A stretch of DNA of 64,000 bases from Natranaerofaba carboxydovora (GTDB lineage: Bacteria; Bacillota; Natranaerobiia; Natranaerobiales; Natranaerofabaceae): positions 1,304,501 through 1,368,500 of the forward strand of contig NZ_CP054394.1 in the NCBI RefSeq assembly GCF_022539405.1, in the 5' to 3' direction. The position numbers and the translations under genes were made by a program. Below, in pieces: positions 39,703 through 57,945 of the stretch (its first letter is position 1; each line of letters opens with the position of its first letter). The notes below the pieces were generated by a model. The model was not told where the DNA came from. It worked only from the letters and a program-made list of their open reading frames with translations, and searched no databases.

Positions 39703-40251
39703 TCAAAACATTTTTTTATGCTTAGTTTTTATTCTTTTTTTAAACGCTTCTTGAATAAGTTCGGACCTATTGTTATCAAATAAGGAAATCTGTTTATATT
39801 CGGGACAAAATTCTTCAAGCATCTTTTCTTCTAAATCTTGATGAGAGATCAAGTCACCACTGGCTAGAATGTGGTAAATATTTATACCTCGTCTAACAAA
39901 AAAAGGACTTAAGAGAAAACTTCTGTGACACCTGGTGGGGTCTTTTTCAGCACATAACAAAGCTACATTTTTCCCCATTTCAGTCTCATTATAAATCCTT
40001 TTAAACCCTTTATCTATATTAAGCGAATCATTAGGACTTCGCTTTCCTCCCATTATATCTCCTAAAAAAATATATTCATATTCTTCATTTTCTAGATTCT
40101 TTTTTAAACTTTCTCGATTATACTGTTTAACAAATTTGCTAAAAGGATTTCTTCTTACATCTGCTACTACTTGGATATTATGTAATTTTAATAATTCTAT
40201 TAAATTTTCAGTAGGATGATTTGAGTGACCTAAGGTATAAATAAACTTAAT
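39703..40251 (-). CDS. DUF488 family protein, apparently with a non-AUG (ATT) start
   Basis: The conserved DUF488 opening IKFIYTLGHSNHPTENLIEL and VVADVRRNPFSKFVKQYN is encoded upstream of the first ATG (40053), which lies inside the domain at MGGKR. No ATG, GTG or TTG exists in frame before it; a strong AAGGAAGGAG ends 8 bases before ATT 40251. So either ATT is the start, as in infC, or a former ATG has mutated. The rest contains ALLCAEKDPTRCHRSFLLSP, the family's C-x-E...CHR motif. DUF488 proteins often lie in defence or mobile regions; function is unknown. It lies just downstream of the pPIWI_RE operon. Confidence 0.75.
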   Translation of the reverse strand: MKFIYTLGHSNHPTENLIELLKLHNIQVVADVRRNPFSKFVKQYNRESLKKNLENEEYEYIFLGDIMGGKRSPNDSLNIDKGFKRIYNETEMGKNVALLCAEKDPTRCHRSFLLSPFFVRRGINIYHILASGDLISHQDLEEKMLEEFCPEYKQISLFDNNRSELIQEAFKKRIKTKHKKMF

Positions 40252-40365
40252 AATTATTACTCCTTCCTTTTTAGTTTAAATCATGTCATTTGGAACTTTT
40301 ACTAGAAAGGTTTTACCTCAACTGGTAATAGACATGTCTTTTAACCTTCAATATATCAGTCACTT

Positions 40366-42915
40366 TTATAATAAATACTCTTCTGCCTTTTTCGCCAAAT
40401 GTAAAGGTGCAGGTAAAGTAGTAGAATCTTCATAATGTACTGACATAGCCCTTAACCTGTGTATTACAGTACTCCATTCTAGAGAACTGTCTTCTGGTGA
40501 TATAATAGCGGGTAGAATCTCTAGTATCTTATTAGCCTGAAAAGTCTTTTGAGGGCTTTTAATTTTAGAAATTTTACCAGATATCCCTTTTTGGGTCTTT
40601 CCTTTTGGGGGTATACTCCAATATATTCCTTTGTTTACCTCAAATACGCCAGAGGTAAAGCCAGTTTCTCTATTATTGTTTTCACCATACCACGTTGGTG
40701 TTTCTTTGCCAGCACGCACTCGAATTATTCTAAGATCTGGGCAATCATTCTTTGACTTTAGATGTTTTGGGTTATCAAAATAAAGCTCATTTGACCTTAT
40801 GTTTTTATCTTGTACCCATTTCCAATACCGTCTTATGTTAGATGCCTCAATTAAAACAAGAGAAGGGCCAGCATTAACTGCATCATTGTTAATAACTTTG
40901 CTTATAAATTCGATTATTTTTTTATCATCTAACTTTTTATCAGCTTTATATTTAGCTAGATCAATTAAACCTTCACGATAATTTTTCCAGCCTTCAGAAC
41001 CGGGGTAGCTTATTTTCACTTCAGTTTTTCCAGTATGCATATATACTGCTACTGGAATTTTTGCACTTTCACCTTTCTTTCCTTTTCTTCTATTTAGATT
41101 TATTAGGCAAATAGCAAATATTGAATATTCTTCAGGCAACTTACTATCATTAGATTTTAACATAACATGAGGTGGTGATATCAAAACCCCTAGTTGCCTT
41201 ATCAAGTCTAAAACTGCATTTTCGCTTCTTTCTATTAAATTATTTTTTTTATCTTCAGCTTCTCTATATTCAGGAGTAATAAACTGAGAAACCCTTTTGG
41301 TTTTAGCTAACCCTTTACGCAAAGCAGATTTTGGATCACTTTTGCCAAAGTAATCTTTATCATCTAACTCAATTAGTGTTCCTGTAGGCACTTGAGGAAA
41401 GGAGGCCTTTTTAGTTATTTTATTTATTCTCTCAGTTTCTGATTTCTTAAAGGAATTTTTGTCTAACTTATCAGCCCAATCTCCGATTTCCCTTTTATTT
41501 ATAAATACTTTAATTTCCGGAGTTTTATAAACTCCATTTATATCTGTTTGATAATCTTTAAGTCCTAAAATTGAAATAATAGATTTTTCAAGGGCATTTT
41601 TAGTAACATCAGTCTGGTGTAAAATTTCAAAATTTAATTCACCACCTATATTATCTGCTAATTCCTGTCTAAGCTCACTATGCTTAGGCTCGACTCTTTT
41701 ACTGCTATCTTTTTTATAGTTATCTTCATCCTCGAATTCTTTTGTACTCAAATTTTTAGGTGCAATCCTTAAAGGTGTAGAGCTAGTTACTATTTTTCGT
41801 CTATTTAACTCAAAATTTTCTTTGAATGATTCTAATTCAGAAAACACATTATCTATTTGCTCAAAAATTTCTTTTTTATCCTTTAAACTCAAACCTGTTC
41901 CAACTCTATGCTTTATTTCAGTTAAAGCATTGCCATAAACGATAGCAGCAGTAGGATCATTATTATACAAGTAATGACCAGGGTCTCTAATTAACTCATT
42001 TGGCTCTGGCAATTTAGTATTCAAGGTGAGGTTTGATAGAATTTTATTGATTTTATTCCCCCAACTCACTTTCCCTTCACCGTAGTTTTCTAGATATAAG
42101 CTTGTTTCAGTAAAACCTGGCGACTGTTTTTCATCATACCAATAAGCGGAAGACTTCAAATAAGTTGTTATATGTTCTTTAGAAGGTAATTTAATATACC
42201 CGTTATTTTGAAGACTAGTAGTAACCCATCTTTTAATACCTGGGTTAACTAAAATAACTGGTTTTTCATAATAAGGAATTGTTTCTACAGAAAATGTCAA
42301 AAAGAACGAATAAGAAAACTCATTCTTGCTACTTTTATAAATGATCGGTGGCCAGGAAACTAGTGTCGATGGGTCACACTGTTCAAAATTGAGAATTTTA
42401 TCATTCAGATACAATTTTTGGCCTATTAATTTGTTGCACAAATATGATGGGACACTTTTGAAATAATAAGATCTTGGATTTGCAGTACCATTTTCATGAG
42501 TATTTGTGTTAAATAGGCTTGTATATTCTTTTTCCCAGTTTAATTCAGTTGTATCAATAAGTTCATGAATAATTTTAACCCTGTCTGGCTTAGTATTATT
42601 AAATTCTGCATTAATCCATGCTTTAATGACTTCACGAAATCGCTCTAAGTTTATCTCACGACTTGAGATAATCCAATAATTATCTTTTTTAAAAGCATTT
42701 TTATTCACATCAATTATCTCAGGGAATAATGCTCTGATAACAGAGTTTAAGGATTTTATTGGTATATTATAATCTTTTCCAGTTTCTAGCTGATATATGG
42801 ATTTTAGCTTTTCTTTCCATTTTTCAGGTAGGAATAAAACATAAAAATCTATATAAACATCAGCATCTTTTGATGGAACAAATGATAAAGGAATTAATTT
42901 GTTACCACTACTCAT
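40366..42915 (-). CDS. pPIWI_RE protein (PIWI/RNase H-like nuclease of the three-gene module)
   Basis: 849 residues. Length, order and context match pPIWI_RE proteins: an N-terminal pPIWI_RE_X region (about 1-400), a charged middle, and a C-terminal RNase H-fold PIWI-like domain (about 560-849). Visible in the latter are FAICLINLNRRKG (about 602), IPVAVYMHTG, LVLIEASNIRRYWKWVQD (about 690), LRIIRVRAGKETPTWYG and the Argonaute-like end LPAPLHLAKKAEEYLL. I cannot assign catalytic carboxylates with certainty. The family was predicted by comparative genomics to act with guide RNA or on RNA-DNA hybrids in defence. It overlaps the helicase gene by 8 bases. Confidence 0.8.
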   Translation of the reverse strand: MSSGNKLIPLSFVPSKDADVYIDFYVLFLPEKWKEKLKSIYQLETGKDYNIPIKSLNSVIRALFPEIIDVNKNAFKKDNYWIISSREINLERFREVIKAWINAEFNNTKPDRVKIIHELIDTTELNWEKEYTSLFNTNTHENGTANPRSYYFKSVPSYLCNKLIGQKLYLNDKILNFEQCDPSTLVSWPPIIYKSSKNEFSYSFFLTFSVETIPYYEKPVILVNPGIKRWVTTSLQNNGYIKLPSKEHITTYLKSSAYWYDEKQSPGFTETSLYLENYGEGKVSWGNKINKILSNLTLNTKLPEPNELIRDPGHYLYNNDPTAAIVYGNALTEIKHRVGTGLSLKDKKEIFEQIDNVFSELESFKENFELNRRKIVTSSTPLRIAPKNLSTKEFEDEDNYKKDSSKRVEPKHSELRQELADNIGGELNFEILHQTDVTKNALEKSIISILGLKDYQTDINGVYKTPEIKVFINKREIGDWADKLDKNSFKKSETERINKITKKASFPQVPTGTLIELDDKDYFGKSDPKSALRKGLAKTKRVSQFITPEYREAEDKKNNLIERSENAVLDLIRQLGVLISPPHVMLKSNDSKLPEEYSIFAICLINLNRRKGKKGESAKIPVAVYMHTGKTEVKISYPGSEGWKNYREGLIDLAKYKADKKLDDKKIIEFISKVINNDAVNAGPSLVLIEASNIRRYWKWVQDKNIRSNELYFDNPKHLKSKNDCPDLRIIRVRAGKETPTWYGENNNRETGFTSGVFEVNKGIYWSIPPKGKTQKGISGKISKIKSPQKTFQANKILEILPAIISPEDSSLEWSTVIHRLRAMSVHYEDSTTLPAPLHLAKKAEEYLL

Positions 42916-45900
42916 CTTTTATCCCCCTCATATTTTCAAGTGCCTCAGCCAAAGGATCATACAAGGCATTAGCAATCTTTATTTCATATTGACTGATATT
43001 ATCTTCTTTAGCATATTTACCTAGATATGGTCGTAATACCTCTTTGATTCCTACAAGTAAACTGGTTTCAGAGGTGTCTTTCCCCTCTTCTTTTGCCGTG
43101 TTTGGAGCAAAAGATGCATCACTGAAATAAACTTTAGCTGGCTGACCTCCTCTAATTAACCTGCCTATAACCTGCCAAATAAGGACTAATTGAGTCCAGC
43201 ATAAAGCTTCACGATCATTCTTAGACAAAGACTTAAAATCTTTATATTTACTTAAACGCGTTTGCCATATCTTAGTTGCCTCACGTCTGAATTCTTTTCC
43301 AACATTTCCAACGTTATATATTTCCCATTTGTTTTGAGTTTGTCTTCTATTTATTGCCCAGTGGTTAAGATACAAAACATCTTGCATAATGTCAGTAGGA
43401 ACAGGCATTGGACGTACTAAAAAATAAGCTGTCCCAAAGGCTGCTACATTATCCTTATTCAATATGTTATGACCTCTTTCAAGAGCCAGCAACGGAGCTA
43501 CCAAGATTTTTGCTTCATAGGTTGCAAATTTATCAACTTCTCCTCTTCTAATTACTGTCCCATCAAAATCTACCTGATCATCCTTTATCAGTTTGCAAAT
43601 TTTATCTTCAGACCAGATGCGAGTAGCATCAAGTTGTTTTTTGACTATACTAGCTTCTTCATAGCTTCCAACCAATAATAATATTCTCTTTCTATCTTCA
43701 TCCAAGTTATCTAGTTCCTCTTCTAATTTGCATTTATTATTTAATGATTGATCTGTAAGATAGTTGATTAACCTTTCAAGGTTATTTTCCCGTTCAATCC
43801 CTGATTTTCCTGAAACACTTATAGGCTCGCCATCTTGAGTACAACCAGGTTCAAAAATAAAGTTACTCTTTTTGATAGCTTCTAATTCTTCATTAGGTGA
43901 TTTTAATATACCGTTTGGTTTAATTTGCACATGATAAGCAGGTGATTTTGGCGCCCAGCTAGTTCCAGACATTAAAAGTGTATGAGGACCATATATCTCT
44001 TCTGATTTAACAAACAGGTTATGAAAATTTAGTAACAGTTCTCTCCCAACTCCCATAGCTCTAAATGCTAACAATTTCCCTACTTTTTTGTTTTTATTAT
44101 CGAATTGGGGGCCATTATCGAAATATTTAAAGCCAAAAACATTTCCTTGTGGAGCTTCTGGAACTAAAGGTATGTAATCCCATAATGTATTTTTAAAGAA
44201 CTCTAAGTTTTCAGCAACCAAATTGAACTCTTCTTCTGCTAAATCCCAGTCCCTTAAAATTGTCCAAAGCGATCTCTCTAATACAGCTAAAGTAATTATA
44301 AACTTTAATTTGGTCAGGATAGAATAGAAATTTTCTTTATTAATATTAGCACTAGTTATATCATACATAGTCAACCAATCAACAAACTTATGTTGTAAAA
44401 GGTTTGAGTTAGTACCAAGAAAGGTAAAAGCAGCAGTTTCATTAAGTAAACCTGGATTTTCAACTCTCTCTCCAAAGGGGTCTCTTCTAAAACTTTCGAG
44501 CTGAGCTTCCATATTTTCAGTATTAGCATTAAAATCATTTTGTTCTTTTTCAAGCTTTATTTCTTCTATAAACTTCTCTATTAACCACTGTGTAGTAAAA
44601 AATTCCCCCCGCACCCATTTTTTTAGAGTAACGTTATCATTAAGCATGGTATGAACATTATTAACAGCGCCTTGAATATTTTGGTGATTACGATACCAAT
44701 TATTAATATCTCTGTGAAGTAGTTGAGCTCTACCATAGGTATAAAACGATGTTTCAACTTCATTGCCTAGCTGGTTTAACCATGAAATGCGAGTTTCATC
44801 TGCTAACATTTGTTCTGATGTAAAAAAACTATCTAGCTGTAATTGTACTCTGTCAGCCTCATCAAATACAACTACGTCTGATTTTCTATATACCGCTTCC
44901 AAAAAACGCAACCGGCGACTATCAATTTGCCATGGTAATCTAGTATAAATAAGGCTAGCAGGAGTAGCAACCCAAATATTTGCTATGTTTAGAGATCGAC
45001 TACTCTTATGAGTAGGGCAATTATAAAAAGCCGGACAACTTTTCTTCTTTTGTTTTATATCTTCTTCGTTTGGGTTTTCTTCTAACAATTGATGACAAGG
45101 TTCTCTTCCAGGTTCAAGATAATAAGTAGTGTTGCTACTCAATCCATTTAAAGGACAACTTGTACTCAGCCAGTCAAAAACATCTAAACTTTCTTCTTGC
45201 CATGGGTCCAAACTATTAACTTTATTATTTTGGTGTACTTTTTTAAGCTGCTCTGTTTTATTTGAAGAGCCTAAAATAGGAGCAGCATTAATATTAAGTT
45301 TTCTCATAACCTCTACAAAATTTACTACAGAGACAATAGTATCCAAAACTATAGTGATATGTAAGTTGTTTTTTGCAGCCCAAACTGCTAGAACTTCCAT
45401 TAATGTTGACTTACCAGAACTAACCATTCCTACAAGATGAAATGCACCATCTAAAGTTAAAGTTTTATCCTCGGAATCTATATCTTGTTTGTCATTATCT
45501 AGTAGGATTTCTAAATCAGTTCTTTCTAAGCGAGAATACCAACTTTTATCCCCGGGAAATTTGTCATCCATCCATCTAGCAGTTTCATATAGCTCTTTTA
45601 ACTTTACACTTATAGCGGATCTTGTTTTTTTGTCAGGATAATTCAACCTATAATCTTGCGAATTTTTAAGCTGTTCCCATGATGAAGGTATTATAGCAGA
45701 GTTTAATTTGCGGTCATTCCAAAAGTAGACCTCTTTTCCTGTTTTGATCCATTGTCTATCTTCAACCTTGTGCCTCGGGCATGTTCTAATTGTAGTTTCA
45801 TACAAATGAGGCCTAGTTGATAAAACACCTGGATTTTTTCTCTCTAGCATTCCTTCATCATCAATATTATAAAGTCTGATCCTATCAGTTATCTCTTTGT

Positions 45901-46198
45901 ATTTATCAATACATTCTTCCCAAAATCTTCTAGATTTATAATTTTGCAAGTAAAACCTTAGGTTGGATATTTTTTTTCTTTGCTCGACTGTCAATTCATT
46001 ATAAGAATCTGTGTTAAAGTTATATCCTGCTAATATTACCCATAGGTCTTTGCAATTTTCTTTTGGAGCAAGTTGTTCCCATAAAAATAGACCAAGCTCA
46101 ATATCCAATATTCGCTTTGAGTACAAAGGTGAATTATCATCTAAAATCCTTTTAAGCTCATTAGCAGCTTTCTTTTTCCAGGAAGATATGTCTCTCAT
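42908..46198 (-). CDS. pPIWI_RE-associated DinG/XPD-like superfamily 2 helicase
   Basis: 1096 residues. An N-terminal pPIWI_RE_Z-like part (about 1-230, with TCPRHKVEDRQW) precedes the helicase core: Walker A GMVSSGKST (about 259), DEAD box VVFDEADRVQ (about 444) and motif VI QVIGRLIRGG (about 1010). Four cysteines between motifs I and II (SCPLNG, PCHQ, SCPAFYNCPTH, about 349-393) fit the [4Fe-4S] cluster of DinG/XPD helicases. It would unwind DNA or R-loops for the PIWI nuclease. The start A is shared with the upstream gene's TAA (TAATG), indicating translational coupling. Confidence 0.85.
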   Translation of the reverse strand: MRDISSWKKKAANELKRILDDNSPLYSKRILDIELGLFLWEQLAPKENCKDLWVILAGYNFNTDSYNELTVEQRKKISNLRFYLQNYKSRRFWEECIDKYKEITDRIRLYNIDDEGMLERKNPGVLSTRPHLYETTIRTCPRHKVEDRQWIKTGKEVYFWNDRKLNSAIIPSSWEQLKNSQDYRLNYPDKKTRSAISVKLKELYETARWMDDKFPGDKSWYSRLERTDLEILLDNDKQDIDSEDKTLTLDGAFHLVGMVSSGKSTLMEVLAVWAAKNNLHITIVLDTIVSVVNFVEVMRKLNINAAPILGSSNKTEQLKKVHQNNKVNSLDPWQEESLDVFDWLSTSCPLNGLSSNTTYYLEPGREPCHQLLEENPNEEDIKQKKKSCPAFYNCPTHKSSRSLNIANIWVATPASLIYTRLPWQIDSRRLRFLEAVYRKSDVVVFDEADRVQLQLDSFFTSEQMLADETRISWLNQLGNEVETSFYTYGRAQLLHRDINNWYRNHQNIQGAVNNVHTMLNDNVTLKKWVRGEFFTTQWLIEKFIEEIKLEKEQNDFNANTENMEAQLESFRRDPFGERVENPGLLNETAAFTFLGTNSNLLQHKFVDWLTMYDITSANINKENFYSILTKLKFIITLAVLERSLWTILRDWDLAEEEFNLVAENLEFFKNTLWDYIPLVPEAPQGNVFGFKYFDNGPQFDNKNKKVGKLLAFRAMGVGRELLLNFHNLFVKSEEIYGPHTLLMSGTSWAPKSPAYHVQIKPNGILKSPNEELEAIKKSNFIFEPGCTQDGEPISVSGKSGIERENNLERLINYLTDQSLNNKCKLEEELDNLDEDRKRILLLVGSYEEASIVKKQLDATRIWSEDKICKLIKDDQVDFDGTVIRRGEVDKFATYEAKILVAPLLALERGHNILNKDNVAAFGTAYFLVRPMPVPTDIMQDVLYLNHWAINRRQTQNKWEIYNVGNVGKEFRREATKIWQTRLSKYKDFKSLSKNDREALCWTQLVLIWQVIGRLIRGGQPAKVYFSDASFAPNTAKEEGKDTSETSLLVGIKEVLRPYLGKYAKEDNISQYEIKIANALYDPLAEALENMRGIKDE

Positions 46199-47289
46199 TA
46201 GTTTCCTTCCTTTCCTAGCTCTTTTACTCTTTTGATAAATTCATTATCAAAATCAAAACTTACTCCTGTTTGATTGTTACTATGATTAATAAAAATTTGT
46301 TTATAGTTTGGAAACGAATCTTTTCTATACTTTGGAACAACTATAAATGCCTTATCCCAGTAAGGTGTATCAGGTATAGTTGCGTTTTTAGCTAATAAGT
46401 ATGGATTTGACCAGTCTTTTACATCTACAGCCCACACTGTTTCATCTGGGAAGGTTATACGTAGGTCATATTTATCAAAATCAGGCCAAAGTTCTATTTT
46501 TAAATTTAATTTTTGCAGTTTATTTGCTAGCTCTAATTCCCATCTACCAGGACGGGCAATAAATCGCTGAATTCCCCTTTTTAATCGTTGATACATTTTG
46601 GGGGTTTCTAAAACTTCTGGCTCTGGGTCGTTAAATTGATTAGTATAGTATGAACATAAATTACTATCACAAGCCGGTCTGTTATTTTTCCATTCAATAA
46701 TCCAACCACAATTACTGCATTTATACACTTTCCCATTAAAAAAGGCAGACGCAGGTATATCTTCATAAGCTTCACTTATGTATTCTGCAGCACAACCGCT
46801 ATCAGGATTGTTCTTAAAATCTATAAGCTTTTTTTTCTTGATTGTAGGGTGTTTTATAATGAATTCTCTAAATATTACATAGTCGATTGGTGCATCTTCC
46901 AAATTGCAAACATCTCTAACTTTTAAAAGCAGTCTTTGGGTTAACTCAGCCTCTATATCCCCTGTCTGGACAGCCAGTTGATTACATGTTTCAGTAGGTA
47001 TACCATCTTCTAATAAAGCTTCATCACTAAATATTTTTTTATCATCTAATATCCCCCAATTTGAAATTGGTTTATGAAAAAATTCCAGCAAATCCTTAAG
47101 GTTTTCTGGAAATGAAATGCTATGATTAATACAATAAGCAGCCAACCTGTCCCAACCAACCTTAATCTCTTCAGGATATGGATAGAATTTATTTTCTTCA
47201 CATAACTTAAAGTCCCATTTAACAAAACCAGTAGCTAAATAACTAATGATCTTTTCAGGAAAATCTTTGTTAAAAGCCGTAGTATCCAT
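46198..47289 (-). CDS. pPIWI_RE-associated restriction endonuclease-fold protein
   Basis: 363 residues. N-terminal helical region (pPIWI_RE_Y-like), then a zinc ribbon (YKCSNCGWIIEW about 193 and ACDSNLCSYY about 207). The C-terminal PD-(D/E)XK nuclease has ELELANKLQKL (about 250), DLRITFP (Asp about 273) and AVDVKDW (D-x-K about 288). It is the first gene of the three-gene operon REase-helicase-pPIWI_RE. It should cut DNA once the complex recognises its target. All catalytic positions look intact. Confidence 0.82.
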   Translation of the reverse strand: MDTTAFNKDFPEKIISYLATGFVKWDFKLCEENKFYPYPEEIKVGWDRLAAYCINHSISFPENLKDLLEFFHKPISNWGILDDKKIFSDEALLEDGIPTETCNQLAVQTGDIEAELTQRLLLKVRDVCNLEDAPIDYVIFREFIIKHPTIKKKKLIDFKNNPDSGCAAEYISEAYEDIPASAFFNGKVYKCSNCGWIIEWKNNRPACDSNLCSYYTNQFNDPEPEVLETPKMYQRLKRGIQRFIARPGRWELELANKLQKLNLKIELWPDFDKYDLRITFPDETVWAVDVKDWSNPYLLAKNATIPDTPYWDKAFIVVPKYRKDSFPNYKQIFINHSNNQTGVSFDFDNEFIKRVKELGKEGN

Positions 47290-47761: not shown

Positions 47762-49024
47762 CTATTTAAAAAAATATTCAATGAGATTTTCTTTATATTC
47801 ACTTATAATTGTACTCCCATCATGACTAATACTTTCTATTAATTCTTCTAAAGGTAGCCCCATCAATGTTATATATATTGCTTTTCCATCAGGAAGTGTT
47901 AATCTAAGAGTATCATTTTTATCTTTCTCTTTTTTCCTATTATCCTTATCTGAAGGGTAATAGATTACTGCTTTACTGAAATTACCTACCATAGAATACA
48001 CAGTCAACTGATACAGGTCACTTTGACTGACTCTTATTTCATCATATAGCTTATATTTGGCATCAGCTATGAAAAGTTCTGTGTTTTCCTTATACACCTG
48101 ATAATCTGGGTACATAGTACTTGCTTTTTTATTTGAAGAGTTATAATAGTAACTGCCTATACTTTTTTGATAGTAAATATCTACTTCTTTTGGAGCAACT
48201 TCTTGAAGAGCTTTTGCTATAAATCTTTCAAACAGCTGATTCATATCAATTAAAAAGGAAGGGTGTAATGATTTGGTGCTACCTTCATATTCAAACATAA
48301 GACCATTATAGATTAAATAACAAAGCTCAAAAGCCTTTTCATAATAACCTGCAAGACGGTCTTTATTTCTATTAAGTTCATCAAACATCTCTTTAGATAA
48401 TAAACAATGAGATACTTCTTTTGATAACATATCTTTGACAAATTGAGTTTTATGTTTAAGTGGCGCAGAACTAATAAGCGGCAAAACCTGGTTTAAAGTA
48501 GCAAGCAAGATTCGGTTTTCTAAAATATTAATCGTTAAGTCCTCATATCTGCAGGGTAAGGCCATTGAAGCCTTGGCATATTGTCCTGCCATCCTAGAGA
48601 ATTGAACCTTTCCCCTTATAAATGATACATTCTCCTCCCTTTCTCTGTATCGTTTTAGTAATCCTTTTTGGATCAAAGCTTCTATTTCCTTAATAAGACA
48701 TGCTACCAGAAGGTCCGTCACCAGTCCTTCATTTAGGTTACTCTCAAGATACTTCTCATAGGTCAATATATCTTCTAATTCTAAAGTATAGGATATTAGT
48801 TTTAGAAGCTTTTTGTTGTTATTAATCTTCGGATATATTACAAGCTGAAAATTATCAAAAGATACAGTACCTATAAATGAAGTAGATTCTACTTGGATTC
48901 CACTTGAGAAGGAATTAATATAGACACTGCCTCTTTTAGCTAAGTCCATTATATGTAGTTCATCCCGGGGCGAGAGATGATACCCCGGGAAAAATTTCTT
49001 TGACCATTCTTTAATCTTTATCAA
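47762..49024 (-). CDS. mcrC: McrC-type subunit of McrBC restriction system
   Basis: 421 residues from TTG 49024, which follows GAGGTGG by 6 bases and overlaps the end of mcrB. N-terminal domain with IGTVSFDNFQLVIYPKI, VSFIRGKVQFSRM in the middle, and a C-terminal PD-(D/E)XK nuclease with YPDYQVYKENTELFIADAKY (Asp and D-A-K). It supplies the cleavage activity for the GTPase McrB on modified DNA. McrC seems intact, but mcrB is frameshifted. Confidence 0.88.
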   Translation of the reverse strand: MIKIKEWSKKFFPGYHLSPRDELHIMDLAKRGSVYINSFSSGIQVESTSFIGTVSFDNFQLVIYPKINNNKKLLKLISYTLELEDILTYEKYLESNLNEGLVTDLLVACLIKEIEALIQKGLLKRYREREENVSFIRGKVQFSRMAGQYAKASMALPCRYEDLTINILENRILLATLNQVLPLISSAPLKHKTQFVKDMLSKEVSHCLLSKEMFDELNRNKDRLAGYYEKAFELCYLIYNGLMFEYEGSTKSLHPSFLIDMNQLFERFIAKALQEVAPKEVDIYYQKSIGSYYYNSSNKKASTMYPDYQVYKENTELFIADAKYKLYDEIRVSQSDLYQLTVYSMVGNFSKAVIYYPSDKDNRKKEKDKNDTLRLTLPDGKAIYITLMGLPLEELIESISHDGSTIISEYKENLIEYFFK

Positions 49025-49964
49025 CTTGATCCACCTCAGTAAAACTTTTAAGTGCATCGATTAGACGTTCTTTATTTTTGGGCAGGAAGATCTCCTGTTT
49101 GAAGGATTGGCTTTCTACATCTACAAAAGATGATCCCAAAATTCTAGATAGGCGAGAATAATCATCATAACAATACTCCTGTAGAAGTGGAAGAATCTTG
49201 TCTTTAAAACAATTGGAAAACTCTTCAATATATTTTATTGGTCTTTCTCGTTCCATGAAATATGAATGCCCGATCTGAAAGTTCCTTCCTACTTCCTTTG
49301 CAATACGGCTGTTAATCTCCTCCAAAAAACTTCCTAAATTAATTCCTTCTACTTCTTCACCTTCTAATAGCTCAGAAGTAGGCATTAGTTCAAAAAATCC
49401 AAACCTTCTTCTAAGGGCAACATCTAACAAAGCTATACTTCTATCTGCTGAGTTCATAGTACCAATGACCAAAACATTATCCGGCACATAGAAAGGTTCA
49501 GAAGACATAGGTAGTACAACGCCTACACCTTTATTATCTTCATCCCTATAACGCTTGTCCTTTTCAAGTAAGGTTATTAATTCTCCAAAGATTCGAGGAA
49601 TATTTCCCCTGTTTATCTCATCGATAATCAATACAAAGGTTTTGTCTAGATTTGCCATGGCTTTTTGGCACATTTTTTTAAAAATGCCTTCCTGTAGAAC
49701 AAATTCAGGGCTTCCCTTCTCCCCTGGTTTTGGCCTATATCCTTCAATGAATTCTTCATAACCAAAAGCAGGATGAAAAGTACAGAAGTAAAGATAGTTT
49801 TCAGAAGCCTGTTCCAAATCTAAGTATTGTCTTTCTGATTTTGTAAGCTCATGGTAACTTTTTTCAAAGTTATTTTGGGCAATTATTTCCCTTGCAAACT
49901 TTAGCGCATAATAAGTTTTGCCTGTACCTGGAGGTCCTACAGTATTATTTGCTTTTGCCTCCAT
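49011..49964 (-). CDS. mcrB: McrB AAA+ GTPase, C-terminal part (frameshifted gene)
   Basis: 317 residues covering the whole motor domain: Walker A GPPGTGKT at its start, FVLIIDEINRGNIPRIFGEL (Walker B), and GTMNSADRSIALLDVALRRR (sensor region, McrB signature). The first nine residues MEAKANNTV are an out-of-frame reading: in the upstream frame the same bases read QKQIIL and lack one base before GGA, where McrB proteins have Y/GPPGTGKT. So this ATG is fortuitous and the gene was once continuous with 49937-50437. Confidence 0.85.
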   Translation of the reverse strand: MEAKANNTVGPPGTGKTYYALKFAREIIAQNNFEKSYHELTKSERQYLDLEQASENYLYFCTFHPAFGYEEFIEGYRPKPGEKGSPEFVLQEGIFKKMCQKAMANLDKTFVLIIDEINRGNIPRIFGELITLLEKDKRYRDEDNKGVGVVLPMSSEPFYVPDNVLVIGTMNSADRSIALLDVALRRRFGFFELMPTSELLEGEEVEGINLGSFLEEINSRIAKEVGRNFQIGHSYFMERERPIKYIEEFSNCFKDKILPLLQEYCYDDYSRLSRILGSSFVDVESQSFKQEIFLPKNKERLIDALKSFTEVDQVDKD

Positions 49965-50437
49965 AAGAGGCTAAATAGTTCATCGAGCTGTGGATCTTCT
50001 TCCACGGGATCTTCAGTATCGTTCTCCTCATTATCCGTTTTATCTTTTTCAGGTCCATCCTGCTGTTTTTTGCCAGGTTTAGTTTCTTTCCACTGCTTAA
50101 ATATCTCTGGCAGATAAAAATTAAAATATGTGTCTGGATAGTCTTCTTCGAAACTCTGTCTAATCTGGAATAACTGTTCTTCTATGTCTTTATCTCTATC
50201 TTCTTTTGAGATACGCTCTTTAAAAGTATCTGCAATCTGTTCTTTATGTTTAGTCGATATAATGGGTTCATAATTATCTGGAAAAGCCATGTGCAAGATA
50301 GCATGTCTCATATCCCATGCCCTGTCGGATTTATTCTCTAAACTATATAATATGTCATCAAGTATTTTTTCTAATTGCTTATCATTTATCAAGCCATTTT
50401 TTTCATTTCTAAAAAACTCCATTAATTGTTTATTCAT
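49937..50437 (-). CDS. mcrB: McrB N-terminal part (frameshifted gene)
   Basis: 166 residues with MRHAILHMAFPDNYEPIIST followed by KHKEQI, a pattern found upstream of the GTPase domain in many McrB proteins, and an acidic linker. It ends LLWRQKQIIL at a TAG created by loss of one base in the codon just before GPPGTGKT (near 49938). Restoring one base gives a single McrB of about 475 residues. It overlaps the peptidase gene by 4 bases. Confidence 0.7.
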   Translation of the reverse strand: MNKQLMEFFRNEKNGLINDKQLEKILDDILYSLENKSDRAWDMRHAILHMAFPDNYEPIISTKHKEQIADTFKERISKEDRDKDIEEQLFQIRQSFEEDYPDTYFNFYLPEIFKQWKETKPGKKQQDGPEKDKTDNEENDTEDPVEEDPQLDELFSLLWRQKQIIL

Positions 50438-51118: not shown

Positions 51119-53464
51119 TTATTTCACCAACTTGTTATGTTTGTTTTTTGCAAGCTCTAGGAAATCAACAGCTAGCTGGTCTTGACATGCAATAACTTCA
51201 TCTATCCCTGTACACACAAGTAAATCATCAATTTCAGCCATAAGCCTGTTTTGTTCTACTCCTTTGTTCCAAAAGTCTACAATCTTGATATGGCTCTTTA
51301 TAGCTTCAACTATTTCTTTAGTTACCTGTTTTAGATTTTCTTTGGTAGCTTCAGGGATATCCTCTTTATTATTAAAGGCTTTTGTTAACATCAAATCATA
51401 AAAAGGTGCTTCTGTTTCCTGGTCTAAACCTTTTGTTTCTTCATCTTCCTGCCTACCTTCTTGTAGTTCCTCAAAGAGCATTTTAAGCTGGCGATATTTT
51501 TCTTCAATATCATTTTCATAGGCTTCAATTATCTTTTCAAGTTTTTCACTGAACCTTTCATAAAGGGCCGGATCTTCCTCAAAGTTTACCTTGCAGTGCT
51601 TTCTAATGGCGTGTTCCATTTCGCTAGCCTTGGCTTTTTGAGTTTTGTTCTGATCTAAAGAGTCTTTAAAATCAGTTGACATTAATTCTACAGGTGGAAC
51701 TTTGGGGTCTATTCCAAGAGAAACTAAGTGTTCATTGATTAATTTTTTAACTTTATTGCCCACACCCATTAAGTTGGTAGTATTATCTTTATAGCGGTGT
51801 CTAACCCTATTTTGTATATGTCCAAAGGCTTTCATAGGAGCCATATAATCATCTGCTGCCGGGTTTGGTAAAATTATGTCCATACTCTGTAAAAACTTCT
51901 TGTAATAAACATCAAAACTTGCCCGCAGATGAACATCTTCTAAAAGTTCAACACAGGATTCTAATACTTCTAGCTGTTTTTCTGGATCTTGGATCTGATA
52001 CTCCACGTATTCTTGGATTTTGTCAATGCCCCTTGATTTAAACAGATCTAGCAGTCTGTAATAGCGATCTCTTAAGATAGGAAGCTCAGAATTAATATCT
52101 TTCATGGCACCATAAACGTCTTCTTTTTCTTCATCTCCATAAATCTGTAGGGCTTCATGCAGGTGATTTCCTATACCAATGTAATCAACTATATACCCTC
52201 TGGTTTTACCCTTAGCTCTACGGTTTACCCTGGCTATAGCTTGAAGGAGGGTGTGTTCTACCATCTTTTTATCTATATACATTATCTGTTCTATTGGAGC
52301 ATCAAAACCTGTTAGAAGCATATCACAGACTATTAAAAAAGCTATCCCGGTGTTTTCTTTTTCATAATCAAACTTCTTCTTGAAGTTTTCAATAGCATCC
52401 ATTTTCATTGCTTCTTTTCTAACCTTGGTCACTTCAGGGTCTTCATTAGTACCTTCAGAAGAAATCACTACTGCAGTCTTTAAAAATTTTAGCTTTTTTA
52501 TAAATTCTAGGTCAGCATTAGATTTTGTTTCTTCTTTTTCTATTCGTTCTTTAAGGGCCTTTTCAATAGCTTTTTGATATCTTATAGCAGCCCGTTTTGA
52601 GCTAGATACCACCTGAGCTTTAAAACCATTTGGTAGAATATTATCAATGTAATGGTTGACTATATCTTTGGCGATAGCTTCTATTCTTTTTTCTGCTTCC
52701 AAGATATCGCCCATTGTACCGTACTTTTTCTTGATTTTAAGTATTTCGTCATAGCTTCTTTCTTTAAATAGATCTTCAAATTTTCTATCAAACTCTGCTT
52801 TTTCATTTATGGCAGTATCAGCAGTTTTACCTTCATAAAGGATAGGTACAGTAGCACCATCTTCTACAGCATCCTGGAGCTTGTAGGTATCAATATAGGA
52901 TCCGAATGTCTCATGGGTTCTTCTGGTATGTCTTTTAGTTATTAAAGGTGTACCGGTAAAAGCTATTTTAGTGGAATTGGGAAAAGCTTTGAACATATTC
53001 ATACTTAAAGTACTAGACTGGGTTCTATGGGCCTCATCAATTAGAGCCAGGATTTTTTCAGATTCATTAATGGTTCCTAAAGTATTATATTCAGGTAAAA
53101 GTTTATCTTCAGCAACTGCTAGAGCTTTTTGAAGTTCTTCAGGTTTTTTGCCATGGTCTCTTTCTAGAAATTTATGGATCATTATCATTAGTATATTTGA
53201 TGTTGTAGTTGCCCCTTTTTCTTTTAGTTCCTCTGTGCTGTTTGCATAATCTACTTTTTCATTTGTAAGTTCCATGGTTTCTCCAAGTTGTTCTTCTAGA
53301 TCTCTTCTATCATTTATCACCAAAACTTTAAAGTCTTTTAAATCTTCCATACTTCTTATTCTCCTTACTAAAAAGACCATGGTAAGAGATTTACCCGAGC
53401 CCTGGGTATGCCAGATAACACCTGAACGTTCTTTGTTGTCTTTTCCCGTCCTGAGTCTGTGGAT
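51119..53464 (-). pseudogene. hsdR: Type I restriction enzyme HsdR, C-terminal fragment
   Basis: Separated from its N-terminal part by the intron/IS66 insertion. It holds most of the helicase: LVINDRRDLEEQL, LIDEAHRTQSS (DEAH), IAFTGTPLI, LIVCDMLLTGFDAPIEQIMY and LLQAIARVNRRAKG, then the C-terminal helical region. The Walker A GSGKSLT is in the 95-bp repeat and so exists in both fragments. Joined to the 57851-58857 fragment the protein would be about 1085 residues. No functional HsdR is expected unless a rare deletion between the repeats restores it; that would do so exactly. Confidence 0.9.
53370..53464. repeat. 95-bp direct repeat of hsdR, left copy
   Basis: Identical to 57851-57945 and includes the HsdR Walker A coding region. 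The copies stand exactly at the two ends of the IS66/intron composite. Confidence 0.95.
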
Positions 53465-53584
53465 GGTCGAGTAGAAGTGCGCCTCTCTACCTTAGGAACA
53501 GGTTTGTTTTCCCCGTTGCTCTCTGTCTCCTTTGAGAGTGTCACAATATTTGTTCCTTAGTGGATTGAGCGCACAACCCTCTTA

Positions 53585-53617
53585 GAACCGTGCTTGCGCT
53601 ATTAACGCACACGGCTC
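53585..53617 (-). ncRNA. Group II intron domain V
   Basis: The minus strand starts GAGCCGTGTGCG and ends GCAAGCACGGTTC: GAGCCGTG pairs with CACGGTTC (one G-T pair) around an internal bulge, as in the catalytic hairpin of group II introns. It lies 13 bases after the maturase stop codon. Confidence 0.85.
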
Positions 53618-53630
53618 CTCATAACATCAT

Positions 53631-54956
53631 TCACGTTACATTGCCAATTATATCTTCCGTATCATATATATTTACATATACTTTAGGTTTAAGAACTTCG
53701 TGCTTCGTCAAGAATAAGTTAAATTTATCCCAGTCAAAACTTGATTTTTGGCTTCTTCTATTCAGCCACTTAAACAAAAGAAGTTTAGTATCATTGTTGA
53801 AATTGCTTATCCTTGAGTTGTCTGTAATACCATAAAACTGGTAATGTCCACGTAGTTTGGCATTTAGTTCTTTCATCAGCTTGGGCGTTGGTGTCGTCCT
53901 GTTGTTTCTGATCCATTCCTTCATGTTTAATAGGGCTGTTTTGTACTTCTTACGGCTTGTCCTTCTTTTTACTCGGAATTTCCCTCGCTGGCTTTTGCTG
54001 CAATAGTGAGTAAAACCTAAAAAGTCGAATGTTTCTGGTTTCTTTCTACCTTCCCTGCCACATTTTTCTTCTGCAAATCTACCAAAAGTTATTATCTTGG
54101 TTTTTTCAGTAGATACACTTAGATTGAATTTATTAAGTCTTTTTTGCAAAGCTCCGTAGAATTTGTTAGCATCATTTTTGTACTGAAAGCAGCACACAAA
54201 ATCATCGGCATACCGAACCATGTAGGCTTGCCCTTTACATTTCGGTTTTACTGCTTTTTCAAACCAGACATCTAAAGCGTAATGTAGATATAAGTTAGCT
54301 AGTATTGGTGATATTAGTCCCCCCTGAGTAGTTCCTTCCTCTGTTTTGTGCATAATTTCATGTTCCATATACCCGGCTTTGAGGGTCCTTTTTATCAACT
54401 GTTTTAAACTAGGGTCAGATATTCGATGGGCTATAAACTCCATTATCCACTCATGGCCTACATTGTCGAAAAATCCTTCAATATCTGCATCTACTACATA
54501 GTTGGTTTTCCTATGTTCGAGGATGATGTTTAGGTGTTTTAACGCACCATGACAGTTTCTGTTAGGTCTAAAACCATAGGAAAAGTCAAGAAAGTCTTGT
54601 TCATAGATTGAATTTAATATCTTTGCAATCCCTCGTTGTAGTAGTTTGTCTTCATAGGCAAGTACACCCAGTGGTCGTGTTTTATTAGTCCCGGGTTTAG
54701 GTATGTTGACTCTTTTAGCCGGCTGTGGACGGTATGATTTGCTTTTGAGTTTTGTTACTAACGCTTTAACATTGCTTTTAAGTTCTTCTCCATACTTAGC
54801 TTTAGTCACTTTGTCAATTCCAGTTGCTTTATTTCCACTTATTTCATTGTGGCATTGGATTAACATTTCTTCATTGATCAGATGTGCCAGCGATGTAAAC
54901 TTTTCTTTGGGTTCTTTCTTGGCAATTTCCGCTATCCTATCCAGTTTCGTTTTCAT
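53631..54956 (-). CDS. ltrA: Group II intron-encoded reverse transcriptase/maturase (441 aa)
   Basis: RT domains: GIDKVTKAKYGEELKSNVKA, NKTRPLGVLAYEDKLLQRGI, FSYGFRPNRNCHGALKHLN, EEGTTQGGLISPILANLYLH and the active-site YADD (MVRYADDFVCC, about 249). The maturase X domain follows (about 330-430). There is no C-terminal HNH endonuclease, so mobility would depend on endonuclease-independent insertion. The protein splices its host RNA and reverse-transcribes it at new sites. Intact and full length for the endonuclease-lacking class. Confidence 0.92.
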   Translation of the reverse strand: MKTKLDRIAEIAKKEPKEKFTSLAHLINEEMLIQCHNEISGNKATGIDKVTKAKYGEELKSNVKALVTKLKSKSYRPQPAKRVNIPKPGTNKTRPLGVLAYEDKLLQRGIAKILNSIYEQDFLDFSYGFRPNRNCHGALKHLNIILEHRKTNYVVDADIEGFFDNVGHEWIMEFIAHRISDPSLKQLIKRTLKAGYMEHEIMHKTEEGTTQGGLISPILANLYLHYALDVWFEKAVKPKCKGQAYMVRYADDFVCCFQYKNDANKFYGALQKRLNKFNLSVSTEKTKIITFGRFAEEKCGREGRKKPETFDFLGFTHYCSKSQRGKFRVKRRTSRKKYKTALLNMKEWIRNNRTTPTPKLMKELNAKLRGHYQFYGITDNSRISNFNNDTKLLLFKWLNRRSQKSSFDWDKFNLFLTKHEVLKPKVYVNIYDTEDIIGNVT

Positions 54957-55534
54957 TCTTTACCACCTCTGCGTGTGTCGAATGTGTCCCTTTTTAGGGA
55001 ATGTTATGTTACTGCCTTTCCTCCTGCAAGAGTTACCCTGCTTCATCGGTACTACGCAGTAATCCGATTCCCTGCCAGTCATTTGGCTTTCTCACTTTGT
55101 TATCGCTTGTACACCATACTCCTTTCGGAGAACTAGCAGGGCCTCCCGGGTTGCCGTGTTATATTAATGTCCAACGTGCCAAGGTCTCCGACCCCGGAGA
55201 AGCCAAAGCGGTCTCACCATTTCGTCCACTTTGGTATTGCCTTCTGCCCGCTTAACAGCATCGGCCTTCTCATTGTTTATTTCAGGGCTCAATCCCTTCA
55301 GCTTTCGCTTTTGGCCCGTTGTCTCGCTATCCTACGCTTAAGCTTAGCTGTTACCAGTTAAGCTCCAAGGACTTGCTACTGGTTGCTGGTTAGGCATTAC
55401 CAGATGGGGTTCACACCCACTATATATTCACGGCCTAGCCCGGCCGCACTAAGCGTCAAACAGTACCCACCTAGATTTTCTTCATACAATATGCCATAAT
55501 CTTCCCCAAATAACCACGAAGGGGATGATTTTTT

Positions 55535-55843
55535 ATGGCAAAAACAAATGAACAGTTAAGAGCTGAGTGGAAAGAGAGAGTCTCAGCATTTCGGGCCAGC
55601 GGCCAAACAGCAAAAGATTGGGCCAAGGCTAATGGTGTTAAACTCAATCGATTACGCTACTGGTGTAGAAAATACAAAGAAGATGCTCCTTCCAAAGAAA
55701 CTAAATGGTCACCAGTAGAAGTAGACTATTCAGATGAAAGTAATATTACAGTAAAAGTAGGTAAAGCCTCAATAGAAGTAAAACCTGGCTATGATAAAAG
55801 TCTTTTAAAAGACTTAGTTAATACATTGTCTGGACTATGTTAA
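55535..55843 (+). CDS. IS66 family accessory protein TnpA (Orf1)
   Basis: 102 residues. Helix-turn-helix-like EWKERVSAFRASGQTAKDWA followed by KLNRLRYWCRKYK, typical of the IS66 first ORF. It overlaps the next ORF by 7 bases. Its exact role in transposition is not known. Confidence 0.88.
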   Translation: MAKTNEQLRAEWKERVSAFRASGQTAKDWAKANGVKLNRLRYWCRKYKEDAPSKETKWSPVEVDYSDESNITVKVGKASIEVKPGYDKSLLKDLVNTLSGLC

Positions 55844-56193
55844 ATGAAGCTACCATAGAACGAGTTTACCTGGCAAGGGGCAAAACGGATCTTAGAAAAT
55901 CAATTGATGGCTTAGCAGTAATTGTAAAAGAATCCTTTGATTTAGATCCCTTCTCTCCCTGCCTTTTTGTCTTTTGCAACAGGAAAAAAGATAAATTAAA
56001 AATACTCCACTGGTCAAACAACGGTTTTTGGCTATATTATAAGCGTTTAGAAGAAGGCAAGTTTAAATGGCCAGATGAAGGTTCTCCTGTTCCTATGAAA
56101 ATAACCTACCGCCAGCTACGCTGGCTGTTGGATGGCCTCTCCCTTGATCAGGGTGATGCCCATAAAGAAGTAAAGGCAAGAACAATATTATAA
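55837..56193 (+). CDS. IS66 family accessory protein TnpB (Orf2)
   Basis: 118 residues with the family block IERVYLARGKTDLRKSIDGL, VFCNRKKDKLKILHWSNNGF and WLYYKRLEEGKFKWP. Essential for IS66 transposition by unknown means. Complete. Confidence 0.92.
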   Translation: MLNEATIERVYLARGKTDLRKSIDGLAVIVKESFDLDPFSPCLFVFCNRKKDKLKILHWSNNGFWLYYKRLEEGKFKWPDEGSPVPMKITYRQLRWLLDGLSLDQGDAHKEVKARTIL

Positions 56194-56205
56194 ATTTTTT
56201 TCTCC

Positions 56206-56233
56206 AAAAAGCCCTGATATTAAAGGGCTTTTT
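56206..56233 (+). terminator. Terminator-like hairpin between IS66 orf2 and transposase
   Basis: AAAAAGCCC and GGGCTTTTT form a 9-bp stem with a T-run, 26 bases before the transposase start. It would keep transposase expression low. Confidence 0.75.
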
Positions 56234-56258
56234 ACCATTTAAGTAGAATTAATTAAAT

Positions 56259-57815
56259 ATGGAAAATAAATCAGAAACCATTAACCAATTAAAAAATAGA
56301 TGTGACCAACTGGAACGCCAAAATGCTGATTTAAAAGAACAAAACGACTGGCTAAAGGAACAGTTTCGTCTTAAGCAAAAAAAGCAGTTTGGAAGTTCTA
56401 GTGAAGCCACCCCTCCAGATCAGCTGCAGTTCTTTAACGAAGCTGAAAAAGAATCTGATTCTAATTCTAAAGAACCCGAACTGGAGGAAATTACATACAA
56501 GCGCCGTAAAAGTAAAGGGCACCGTGAAGACCAGCTTGACGGTTTGCCTGAAGAGACTATCGAGCACCGCCTTTCCCCCGAGGAGCAGGTGTGTTCCTGC
56601 TGTGGTGACGAGCTTCATGAAATGAGTACAGAAGAGAGAAAAGAACTAAAGATCATTCCTGCTAAGGCAAGCGTAGTTAAACATGTACGCTATGTTTATG
56701 CTTGTCGCCGCTGTGATAAGGAAGGCACTGAGAACTCCATAATTACAGCTTCCATGCCTAACCCGGTTTTACCCGGCAGTGTAGCATCCTCTTCTGCCGT
56801 AGCTCATATCATGAACCAAAAATACGTAGATGCTCTGCCCCTTTATCGTCAGGAACAACAGTTATCTCGTTTGGGTATAAAACTGTCAAGACAGACTATG
56901 GCTAACTGGATGATAGAATGCTCAAATCGCTGGCTCACTCCTTTATACAATAGATTACATGAACTATTAGTTGAAAAAGACATTTTGCATGCTGATGAGA
57001 GCAATCTTCAGGTACTTCGTGAAGATGGTAGGTCTGCAAAGAATAAATCATTTCTTTGGCTTTACCGTACCGGACGAGAAGATGAACCAATAATACTTTA
57101 TGACTACAGAACCACCAGGGCAAGTAAGCACCCCCGAAAGTTCTTGGCTGATTTTGAAGGATTCTTACAGGTTGATGGCTACTCAGGGTACAATGATTTA
57201 TCTGATATCAGCCTTGTTGGGTGTTTAGCTCACGCTAGGCGTAAATTTGATGAAGCATTAAAAGCGCTCCCAAAAGACCAACAAAATGCTCAAGTAAGTG
57301 CTAAGAAAGGACTGGAGTTTTGCAACCAACTCTTTGCCATAGAACATGACCTTCGGGATAAAACGCCCGAAGAGCGTCACAAAATTCGGCACGAGCGTAG
57401 TTTGCCGGTATTAGAAGAGTTCTACGCATGGCTTAAAGAACAAAAACCTAAAGTTCTTCCTAAAAGTGCCTTTGGTAAGGCTATCAACTACTGTTTAAAT
57501 CAGTGGCCTAAACTTGTGAAGTTTTTAGAAGATGGTCGCTTAGAGTTAGATAACAACAGAGCTGAGCGTTCCATCAAGCCTTTTGTAGTGGGTCGAAAAA
57601 ACTGGTTGTTTGCCAATACTCCTAAGGGTGCTAAGGCCAGTGCTACAATTTACAGTATTGTAGAAACAGCCAAAGAAAACGGTTTGAAACCATTTGAATA
57701 CCTCAAATTCCTGTTTGAAAACCTTCCTAATATTGATCTTCAAGACCAAGAAGCTATTGATGAGTTACTACCATGGTCTGATGCTATCCCTTCAGAGTGT
57801 AAAATCCAAAAGTAA
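56259..57815 (+). CDS. IS66 family transposase TnpC
   Basis: 518 residues: leucine-zipper-like N terminus, the zinc-finger-like CSCCGDELHEM, a DDE core with ILHADESNLQVL, FLQVDGYSGYNDLS, VGCLAHARRKF and LDNNRAERSIKPFVVGRKNW, ending in the IS66 C-terminal tail (NLPNIDLQDQEAIDELLPW). Catalytic residues appear complete, so the element may still be active. No clear ribosome site precedes its ATG and a hairpin terminator lies just upstream, suggesting tight limitation. Confidence 0.93.
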   Translation: MENKSETINQLKNRCDQLERQNADLKEQNDWLKEQFRLKQKKQFGSSSEATPPDQLQFFNEAEKESDSNSKEPELEEITYKRRKSKGHREDQLDGLPEETIEHRLSPEEQVCSCCGDELHEMSTEERKELKIIPAKASVVKHVRYVYACRRCDKEGTENSIITASMPNPVLPGSVASSSAVAHIMNQKYVDALPLYRQEQQLSRLGIKLSRQTMANWMIECSNRWLTPLYNRLHELLVEKDILHADESNLQVLREDGRSAKNKSFLWLYRTGREDEPIILYDYRTTRASKHPRKFLADFEGFLQVDGYSGYNDLSDISLVGCLAHARRKFDEALKALPKDQQNAQVSAKKGLEFCNQLFAIEHDLRDKTPEERHKIRHERSLPVLEEFYAWLKEQKPKVLPKSAFGKAINYCLNQWPKLVKFLEDGRLELDNNRAERSIKPFVVGRKNWLFANTPKGAKASATIYSIVETAKENGLKPFEYLKFLFENLPNIDLQDQEAIDELLPWSDAIPSECKIQK

Positions 57816-57850
57816 TCTTTATTTCAAGGTGGGCGCTATTTGACGCTCAC

Positions 57851-57945
57851 AAAAAGACCATGGTAAGAGATTTACCCGAGCCCTGGGTATGCCAGATAAC
57901 ACCTGAACGTTCTTTGTTGTCTTTTCCCGTCCTGAGTCTGTGGAT
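57851..57945. repeat. 95-bp direct repeat of hsdR, right copy
   Basis: Identical to 53370-53464; begins immediately after the last base of the IS66 right inverted repeat and continues without break into the hsdR N-terminal part. Confidence 0.95.

What the first reader, a model, noticed from the sequence alone, without database searches (positions are those of the whole stretch)
40366..47289. Complete three-gene pPIWI_RE system
Three overlapping minus-strand genes encode a PD-(D/E)XK nuclease with zinc ribbon, a DinG-like helicase with an Fe-S cysteine set, and an RNase H/PIWI-like protein. This matches the pPIWI_RE module predicted by comparative genomics to act against invading DNA through RNA-DNA hybrids. 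Experimental knowledge of this family is thin, to my knowledge, and all three genes appear intact here, directly beside a DUF488 gene and McrBC.
Basis: partly seen in the sequence, partly recalled or inferred. Interest (0 to 1): 0.8.

Follow-up and report, generated by a model that had tools for sequence, protein, structure and literature searches.

The report
Intact three-gene bacterial pPIWI_RE system
Three overlapping genes encode a known but little-studied bacterial module (an Argonaute-like protein that probably cannot cut, a DNA helicase and a DNA-cutting enzyme), which most likely finds and destroys invading DNA; this is a clean new copy of a known system, not a new kind.

Summary
The finding is correct. 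Window 40366-47289 (minus strand) holds three overlapping, uninterrupted genes in the order REase, DinG-like helicase, pPIWI_RE. All pPIWI_RE-specific Pfam domains score above their curated cut-offs, and the full-length PADLOC models score 146, 654 and 474 bits. The family's defining Arg and Glu are present (R732, E799). Strand 1 has no acidic residue and strand 4 ends in Glu, so the PIWI part probably binds but does not cut. The REase and helicase motifs are complete. The best mechanism (inferred) is a non-cutting, guide- or hybrid-binding PIWI sensor that brings in a helicase and a PD-(D/E)XK nuclease to destroy invading DNA. DdmDE and ApsAB, which eliminate plasmids, work this way, and the REase model's top PDB match is DdmD. 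That link is suggestive only (E=0.0026, no sequence match). A scan found 334 relatives and PADLOC already lists the system: a new member of a known kind. Nearby mcrB is frameshifted and hsdR is split, while the triad is intact.

The parts
46198..47289 (-). Gene 1: REase protein (363 aa): Y domain, zinc ribbon, PD-(D/E)XK nuclease (PprRE)
   Evidence: Pfam PF18154 1.5e-33 and PF18156 1.8e-13; PADLOC PprRE 146 bits; model pLDDT 89
46840..47190 (-). Y domain (residues 34-150) with the family's invariant Arg (R141, 92 of 92 sequences)
46654..46719 (-). Zinc ribbon, C191-C194-C207-C212 (all four Cys in 90 of 92 sequences)
46207..46548 (-). PD-(D/E)XK nuclease domain (residues 248-361); E251, D275, D289-V-K291 (this set complete in 84 of 92 sequences)
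42908..46198 (-). Gene 2: Z domain + DinG-like SF2 helicase (1096 aa, PprDinG)
   Evidence: Pfam PF18155 3.3e-28; PADLOC PprDinG 654 bits
45659..46117 (-). pPIWI_RE_Z domain (residues 28-180)
45404..45415 (-). Walker A, G262-K263-S-T (GK in 92 of 93 sequences)
45017..45157 (-). Fe-S cysteine set C348, C368, C388, C394 (93 of 93 sequences)
44852..44863 (-). DEAD box, residues 446-449 (93 of 93 at D446, E447, D449)
43151..43174 (-). Helicase motif VI Q1009xxGRxxR1016 (92 of 93 sequences)
40366..42915 (-). Gene 3: pPIWI_RE protein (849 aa, PprPIWI), Argonaute-like fold
   Evidence: Pfam and PADLOC; model pLDDT 87, PDB matches to MpAgo, RsAgo, KmAgo, Piwi
41725..42882 (-). pPIWI_RE_X N-terminal domain (residues 12-397)
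41167..41448 (-). MID domain (residues 490-583) with nearly invariant D527-P-K529, R533, Q544, D570, G576; likely pocket for a guide 5' end (inferred)
40372..41124 (-). RNase H/PIWI domain (residues 598-848), first strand to C-terminus
41098..41124 (-). RNase H strand 1 (SIFAICLIN): no acidic residue, canonical first catalytic Asp missing
40846..40848 (-). E690 at the end of RNase H strand 4, where Asp is canonical (relatives: His 46, Asp 23, Glu 10 of 86)
40720..40722 (-). R732, the defining Arg of pPIWI_RE (81 of 86)
40519..40521 (-). E799, the defining Glu of pPIWI_RE (79 of 86)

Best explanation
This is a complete three-gene pPIWI_RE system that probably destroys invading DNA (plasmid, phage or other mobile element). 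Shown by sequence and models: an intact operon-like arrangement; an Argonaute-like protein with an apparently dead RNase H site; a helicase with complete ATPase motifs and an Fe-S cysteine set; a PD-(D/E)XK nuclease with complete metal-binding motif and zinc ribbon. Inferred: the MID domain holds the 5' end of a short guide, or the protein holds an RNA-DNA hybrid such as an R-loop. Recognition of foreign DNA then recruits the helicase, which opens and travels along the DNA, and the nuclease cuts it. Sensor and cutter would be separate proteins, as in DdmDE and ApsAB, rather than one slicing Argonaute. The nature of the guide is not known.
For: Domains and full-length system models. REase-DinG-PIWI order seen in nearly all loci examined. 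Helicase motifs and Fe-S Cys conserved in 92-93 of 93; REase site complete in 84 of 92; PIWI strand 1 lacks the canonical Asp in all 86 aligned, so the conserved catalysis sits in the partners. Argonaute fold over the whole protein. REase model's best PDB matches are DdmD chains. Related loci lie beside other defence genes: hsdS/hsdR at L019, gajB and pglZ at L047, mcrBC and hsdMSR here. Patchy distribution: absent from two genomes of the same order and above cut-off only in this genome among 398 of the phylum, while the nearest relative found is a Peptococcaceae MAG at 41-42%; relatives sit on many plasmids.
Against: No three-gene member has been shown to block a plasmid or phage. The only biochemical study, on P. 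stutzeri PIWI-RE, reports guided cleavage by the PIWI protein itself and a ciprofloxacin-sensitivity phenotype (PMC10991935). The DdmD match is weak (E=0.0026, TM 0.30) and no DdmD sequence match appears in profile searches. Eight of 92 relatives' REase proteins fail the motif test.
Confidence: 0.55

Rival explanations
1. Abortive infection: recognition of foreign DNA switches on the nuclease, which degrades DNA indiscriminately and kills the cell, as in the long-B pAgo-nuclease (BPAN) system.
For: BPAN pairs a catalytically inactive long pAgo with a PD-(D/E)XK DNase and kills by collateral DNA degradation (PMC10620215). Here too the Argonaute looks inactive and the partner is PD-(D/E)XK.
Against: BPAN has no helicase; here a large helicase with strictly conserved motifs sits between sensor and nuclease, which suggests processive action on the target itself.
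Confidence: 0.2
2. A housekeeping role: the system resolves RNA-DNA hybrids or stalled replication forks in the host genome rather than defending it.
For: Deletion of piwi-re in P. stutzeri gives ciprofloxacin sensitivity and filaments (PMC10991935). DinG-like helicases act on R-loops (PMC3702460).
Against: Patchy distribution even among close genomes, presence on plasmids and location beside defence genes are unlike housekeeping genes.
Confidence: 0.15
3. The PIWI protein is itself an active guided nuclease, as reported for P. stutzeri, using residues other than the canonical RNase H set.
For: PsPIWI-RE is reported to cut DNA with RNA guides, dependent on D525 and D610 (PMC10991935). Strand 4 here ends in Glu (E690), which could hold a metal.
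Against: Strand 1 of the model has no Asp or Glu (residues 598-606), and no relative has an acid at residue 603, the aligned site. Burroughs et al. state that only a subset retains catalytic residues.
Confidence: 0.1

Closest known systems
pPIWI_RE three-gene system (Burroughs et al. 2013, PMC3702460; PADLOC PprRE/PprDinG/PprPIWI)
   Same: All domains, gene order, overlapping genes, the Arg/Glu signature, Fe-S cysteines, zinc ribbon.
   Different: Nothing that would set it apart. No HTH domain was detected at the REase N-terminus (fused in some members).
P. stutzeri PIWI-RE (PMC10991935)
   Same: Same family; also in an operon after dinG.
   Different: Reported to use catalytic D525 and D610; the window protein lacks an acidic residue on RNase H strand 1. 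The two sequences could not be aligned here.
DdmDE and ApsAB plasmid-elimination systems
   Same: Argonaute-like, non-cutting sensor plus SF2 helicase plus PD-(D/E)XK nuclease. ApsA has the motifs QxxGR and D...DVK; the window has QVIGR and D...DVK.
   Different: Helicase and nuclease are one protein there and two here; no sequence similarity detected; the fold match is weak.
BPAN (long-B pAgo with bAgaN nuclease, PMC10620215)
   Same: Catalytically inactive Argonaute-like protein with a PD-(D/E)XK partner.
   Different: No helicase partner; classical long-B pAgo rather than pPIWI_RE.

Membership tests
pPIWI_RE three-gene system | RNase H/PIWI domain with X and MID N-terminal to it | tested here: met
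   PF13032, PF18157, PF13111 all above cut-off; Argonaute fold
pPIWI_RE three-gene system | Conserved Arg and Glu on the RNase H sheet extension | tested here: met
   R732 and E799, on strands 728-734 and 798-804
pPIWI_RE three-gene system | Extra helix after the first three strands of the RNase H fold | tested here: met
   Strands 598-606, 619-627, 632-636, then helices 646-654 and 664-682, then strand 685-690
pPIWI_RE three-gene system | Gene order REase, DinG, pPIWI_RE with overlapping or close ends | tested here: met
   Overlaps of 1 and 8 bases; same order in the relatives
pPIWI_RE three-gene system | DinG-type helicase with Fe-S cysteine region | tested here: met
   C348, C368, C388, C394, conserved in 93 of 93
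pPIWI_RE three-gene system | Large helical insertion between helix 4 and strand 5 of the helicase | not tested
pPIWI_RE three-gene system | REase protein with Y domain (conserved Arg), zinc ribbon and REase fold | tested here: met
   R141 in 92 of 92, four Cys, E-D-D-K site, PD-(D/E)XK topology
pPIWI_RE three-gene system | RNA-dependent restriction of invading DNA (predicted function) | not testable with these tools
   Needs expression and plasmid or phage assays
Catalytically active PIWI nucleases | Acidic catalytic residues on RNase H strands 1 and 4 | tested here: not met
   No acid on strand 1; Glu on strand 4
DdmDE/ApsAB | Helicase and PD-(D/E)XK nuclease fused in one protein | tested here: not met
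   Separate genes here
DdmDE/ApsAB | Nuclease region homologous to DdmD | tested here: inconclusive
   Top Foldseek matches are DdmD (E=0.0026, prob 0.99, TM 0.30), but the sequence profile finds no DdmD
BPAN | Two-component: inactive long-B pAgo plus PD-(D/E)XK nuclease, no helicase | tested here: not met
   A 1096-aa helicase is the middle gene

The most novel reading that the evidence does not exclude
The three-gene pPIWI_RE system and DdmDE/ApsAB are branches of one family of plasmid-destroying systems: in pPIWI_RE the helicase and nuclease are separate genes, in DdmD/ApsA they are fused, and in both a non-cutting Argonaute-like protein aims them.
Probability: 0.2. Interest if true: 0.65.

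Novelty: new member of a known kind. Interest (0 to 1): 0.36.

Why it matters
The three-gene pPIWI_RE system was predicted in 2013 and is in defence-system catalogues, but no plasmid- or phage-exclusion test of it was found in the library searched. This copy is intact, about 7 kb and easy to clone. The near-total loss of the PIWI active site across relatives, with helicase and nuclease motifs kept, gives a clear prediction: the PIWI protein finds, the partners destroy. Confirming that would extend the DdmDE/ApsAB logic to a much wider set of bacteria.

Tried and rejected
Close-relative scan of genome contigs and viral contigs with the PIWI protein alone found nothing; the helicase alignment A1 then found 334 relatives in genomes and none in viral contigs. 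No phage record matches. Solved-structure sequence searches found no homologue for any of the three proteins. DUF488 as a fourth component: rejected, no DUF488 homologue near the triad in the relatives' loci. Obtaining ApsA/DdmD sequences with a degenerate motif-VI pattern in cyanobacteria: five of the six matches were the same small ORF, which looks like riboflavin synthase (my reading, not profiled), and the sixth lay in no long ORF, so a profile-profile test with DdmD was not possible. P. stutzeri PIWI-RE could not be fetched, so its D525/D610 could not be mapped. Promoter matches upstream are no more than chance (33 found, 38.8 expected).

Full report
Observation. The three minus-strand ORFs lie exactly at the stated coordinates: 46198-47289 (363 aa), 42908-46198 (1096 aa) and 40366-42915 (849 aa), overlapping by 1 and 8 bases, with no internal stop. 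PADLOC, a catalogue of defence systems, has full-length models for all three (PprPIWI 474 bits, PprDinG 654 bits, PprRE 146 bits). The genome has one copy. This is far beyond chance.

Relatives. Plasmid searches found relatives in Nostoc, Calothrix, Streptomyces, Azospirillum, Bradyrhizobium, Cupriavidus and Hymenobacter. A nine-sequence helicase alignment then found 334 relatives in 84,980 bacterial and archaeal genomes, of which the best 80 were kept. Across these loci the REase-DinG-PIWI order is nearly universal; the exceptions are mostly short or end-truncated contigs. The nearest relative found is a Peptococcaceae MAG (41-42% identity). By contrast, two other genomes of the same order lack the gene, and of 398 genomes of the phylum only this one has a match above the cut-off. 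Such patchiness suggests horizontal spread, as the 2013 authors noted.

Anatomy. REase: invariant Arg R141 (92 of 92), zinc ribbon C191/C194/C207/C212 (90 of 92), and E251-D275-D289-x-K291 (84 of 92). The model is confident (pLDDT 89) and shows a helical N-terminal half, a zinc-ribbon region and a PD-(D/E)XK-type helix-strand order. Helicase: GK of Walker A in 92 of 93, four Fe-S Cys in 93 of 93, DExD in 93 of 93, motif VI in 92 of 93. PIWI: the defining Arg and Glu are R732 (81 of 86) and E799 (79 of 86). The model (pLDDT 87) gives strands 598-606, 619-627, 632-636, helices 646-654 and 664-682, strand 685-690, which matches the described RNase H core with the extra helix typical of the family. 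Foldseek against the PDB returns Argonautes only among the top 50: MpAgo, RsAgo, KmAgo, Piwi, human Ago (E down to 5.8e-14).

The RNase H active site is degenerate. Strand 1 (SIFAICLIN) has no acidic residue, and residue 603, which I align with the canonical first Asp, is not acidic in any of 86 aligned relatives. Eleven relatives have Asp or Glu three residues further on (606), at the strand's end, which is not the canonical place. Residue 690 at the end of strand 4 is Glu here and His, Asp or Glu in most relatives. A stand-alone-type Streptomyces homologue also lacks an acid at the strand 1 site. Burroughs et al. wrote that only a subset keeps catalytic residues; this protein is outside that subset. 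P. stutzeri PIWI-RE was reported active with D525 and D610; I could not fetch that sequence to align it. That catalysis sits in the partners is an inference from conservation.

Mechanism. The best reading is a non-cutting, nucleic-acid-holding PIWI sensor that recruits a helicase and a separate nuclease against invading DNA. Three lines point to defence: patchy distribution, occurrence on plasmids, and neighbours. In this window the triad sits between a DUF488 gene and mcrBC and hsdMSR-type genes. The nearest relative lies by hsdS and hsdR, and L047 by gajB and pglZ. Whether the PIWI protein carries a guide or senses R-loops, as first proposed, is open; the MID domain keeps K529, R533 and Q544, consistent with binding a 5' end, but that is inference.

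A lead beyond the known. The REase model's best PDB matches are five DdmD chains among the top 15, the helicase-nuclease of the DdmDE plasmid-elimination system (best E=0.0026, prob 0.99). DdmE is a catalytically inactive, guide-using Argonaute that recruits DdmD, an SF2 helicase with a C-terminal PD-(D/E)XK nuclease (PMC12409362). The E. coli ApsAB system has the same parts, with motifs QAVGRVER and D...DVK (PMC11096173); the window has QVIGRLIR and D...DVK. The parts list is thus alike, but fused differently. The fold match is weak (TM 0.30, rmsd 17.9), profile searches find no DdmD sequence, and an attempt to fetch ApsA relatives failed. I treat shared mechanism as plausible and shared ancestry as unproven.

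DUF488. Its reading frame is full length (39703-40254, Pfam 66 bits) if translation starts at ATT after the strong ribosome-binding site AGGAAGGAG. A terminator-like hairpin follows it at 39631-39606 and none was found on the minus strand between it and the PIWI gene, so it may share the transcript, but no relative's locus has it.

Verdict. It is a good experimental candidate rather than a surprise.

Noticed in passing
window 51119-53380, 57847-58857, with 53465-57850 between: hsdR is split in two by an insertion holding an IS66-type transposase set (55535-57815) and a group II intron (RT 53631-54956; Rfam intron match 55182-55413, minus strand). The two breakpoints carry a perfect 95-bp direct repeat of hsdR sequence (53370-53464 and 57851-57945), much longer than the short target duplication expected of IS66; how it arose, and whether recombination between the repeats can restore hsdR, is unexplained.
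   Followed up: partly
window 49011-50437: mcrB is broken into two ORFs by an apparent one-base deletion just before the Walker A motif; mcrC (47762-49057) looks intact.
   Followed up: partly
window 39703-40254: DUF488 gene apparently starting at ATT after a strong ribosome-binding site; ORF callers limited to ATG, GTG and TTG see only its last 116 codons.
   Followed up: yes
L102:289-9627 and L103:4308-14078: Giant pPIWI_RE fusion proteins of 3112 and 3256 aa in Bradyrhizobium and Azospirillum plasmids; Pfam was run on the Azospirillum one only, and its C-terminal two thirds carry just a weak AAA_22 match.
   Followed up: partly
L017, L014, L012: WYL-domain genes are divergently placed just upstream of the REase gene in several proteobacterial plasmid copies, suggesting a regulator.
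   Followed up: no
L060, L061, L086, L088, L092, L093, L036, L078: Some actinobacterial REase proteins do not keep the full E-D-D-K site; possibly degenerate or misaligned.
   Followed up: no
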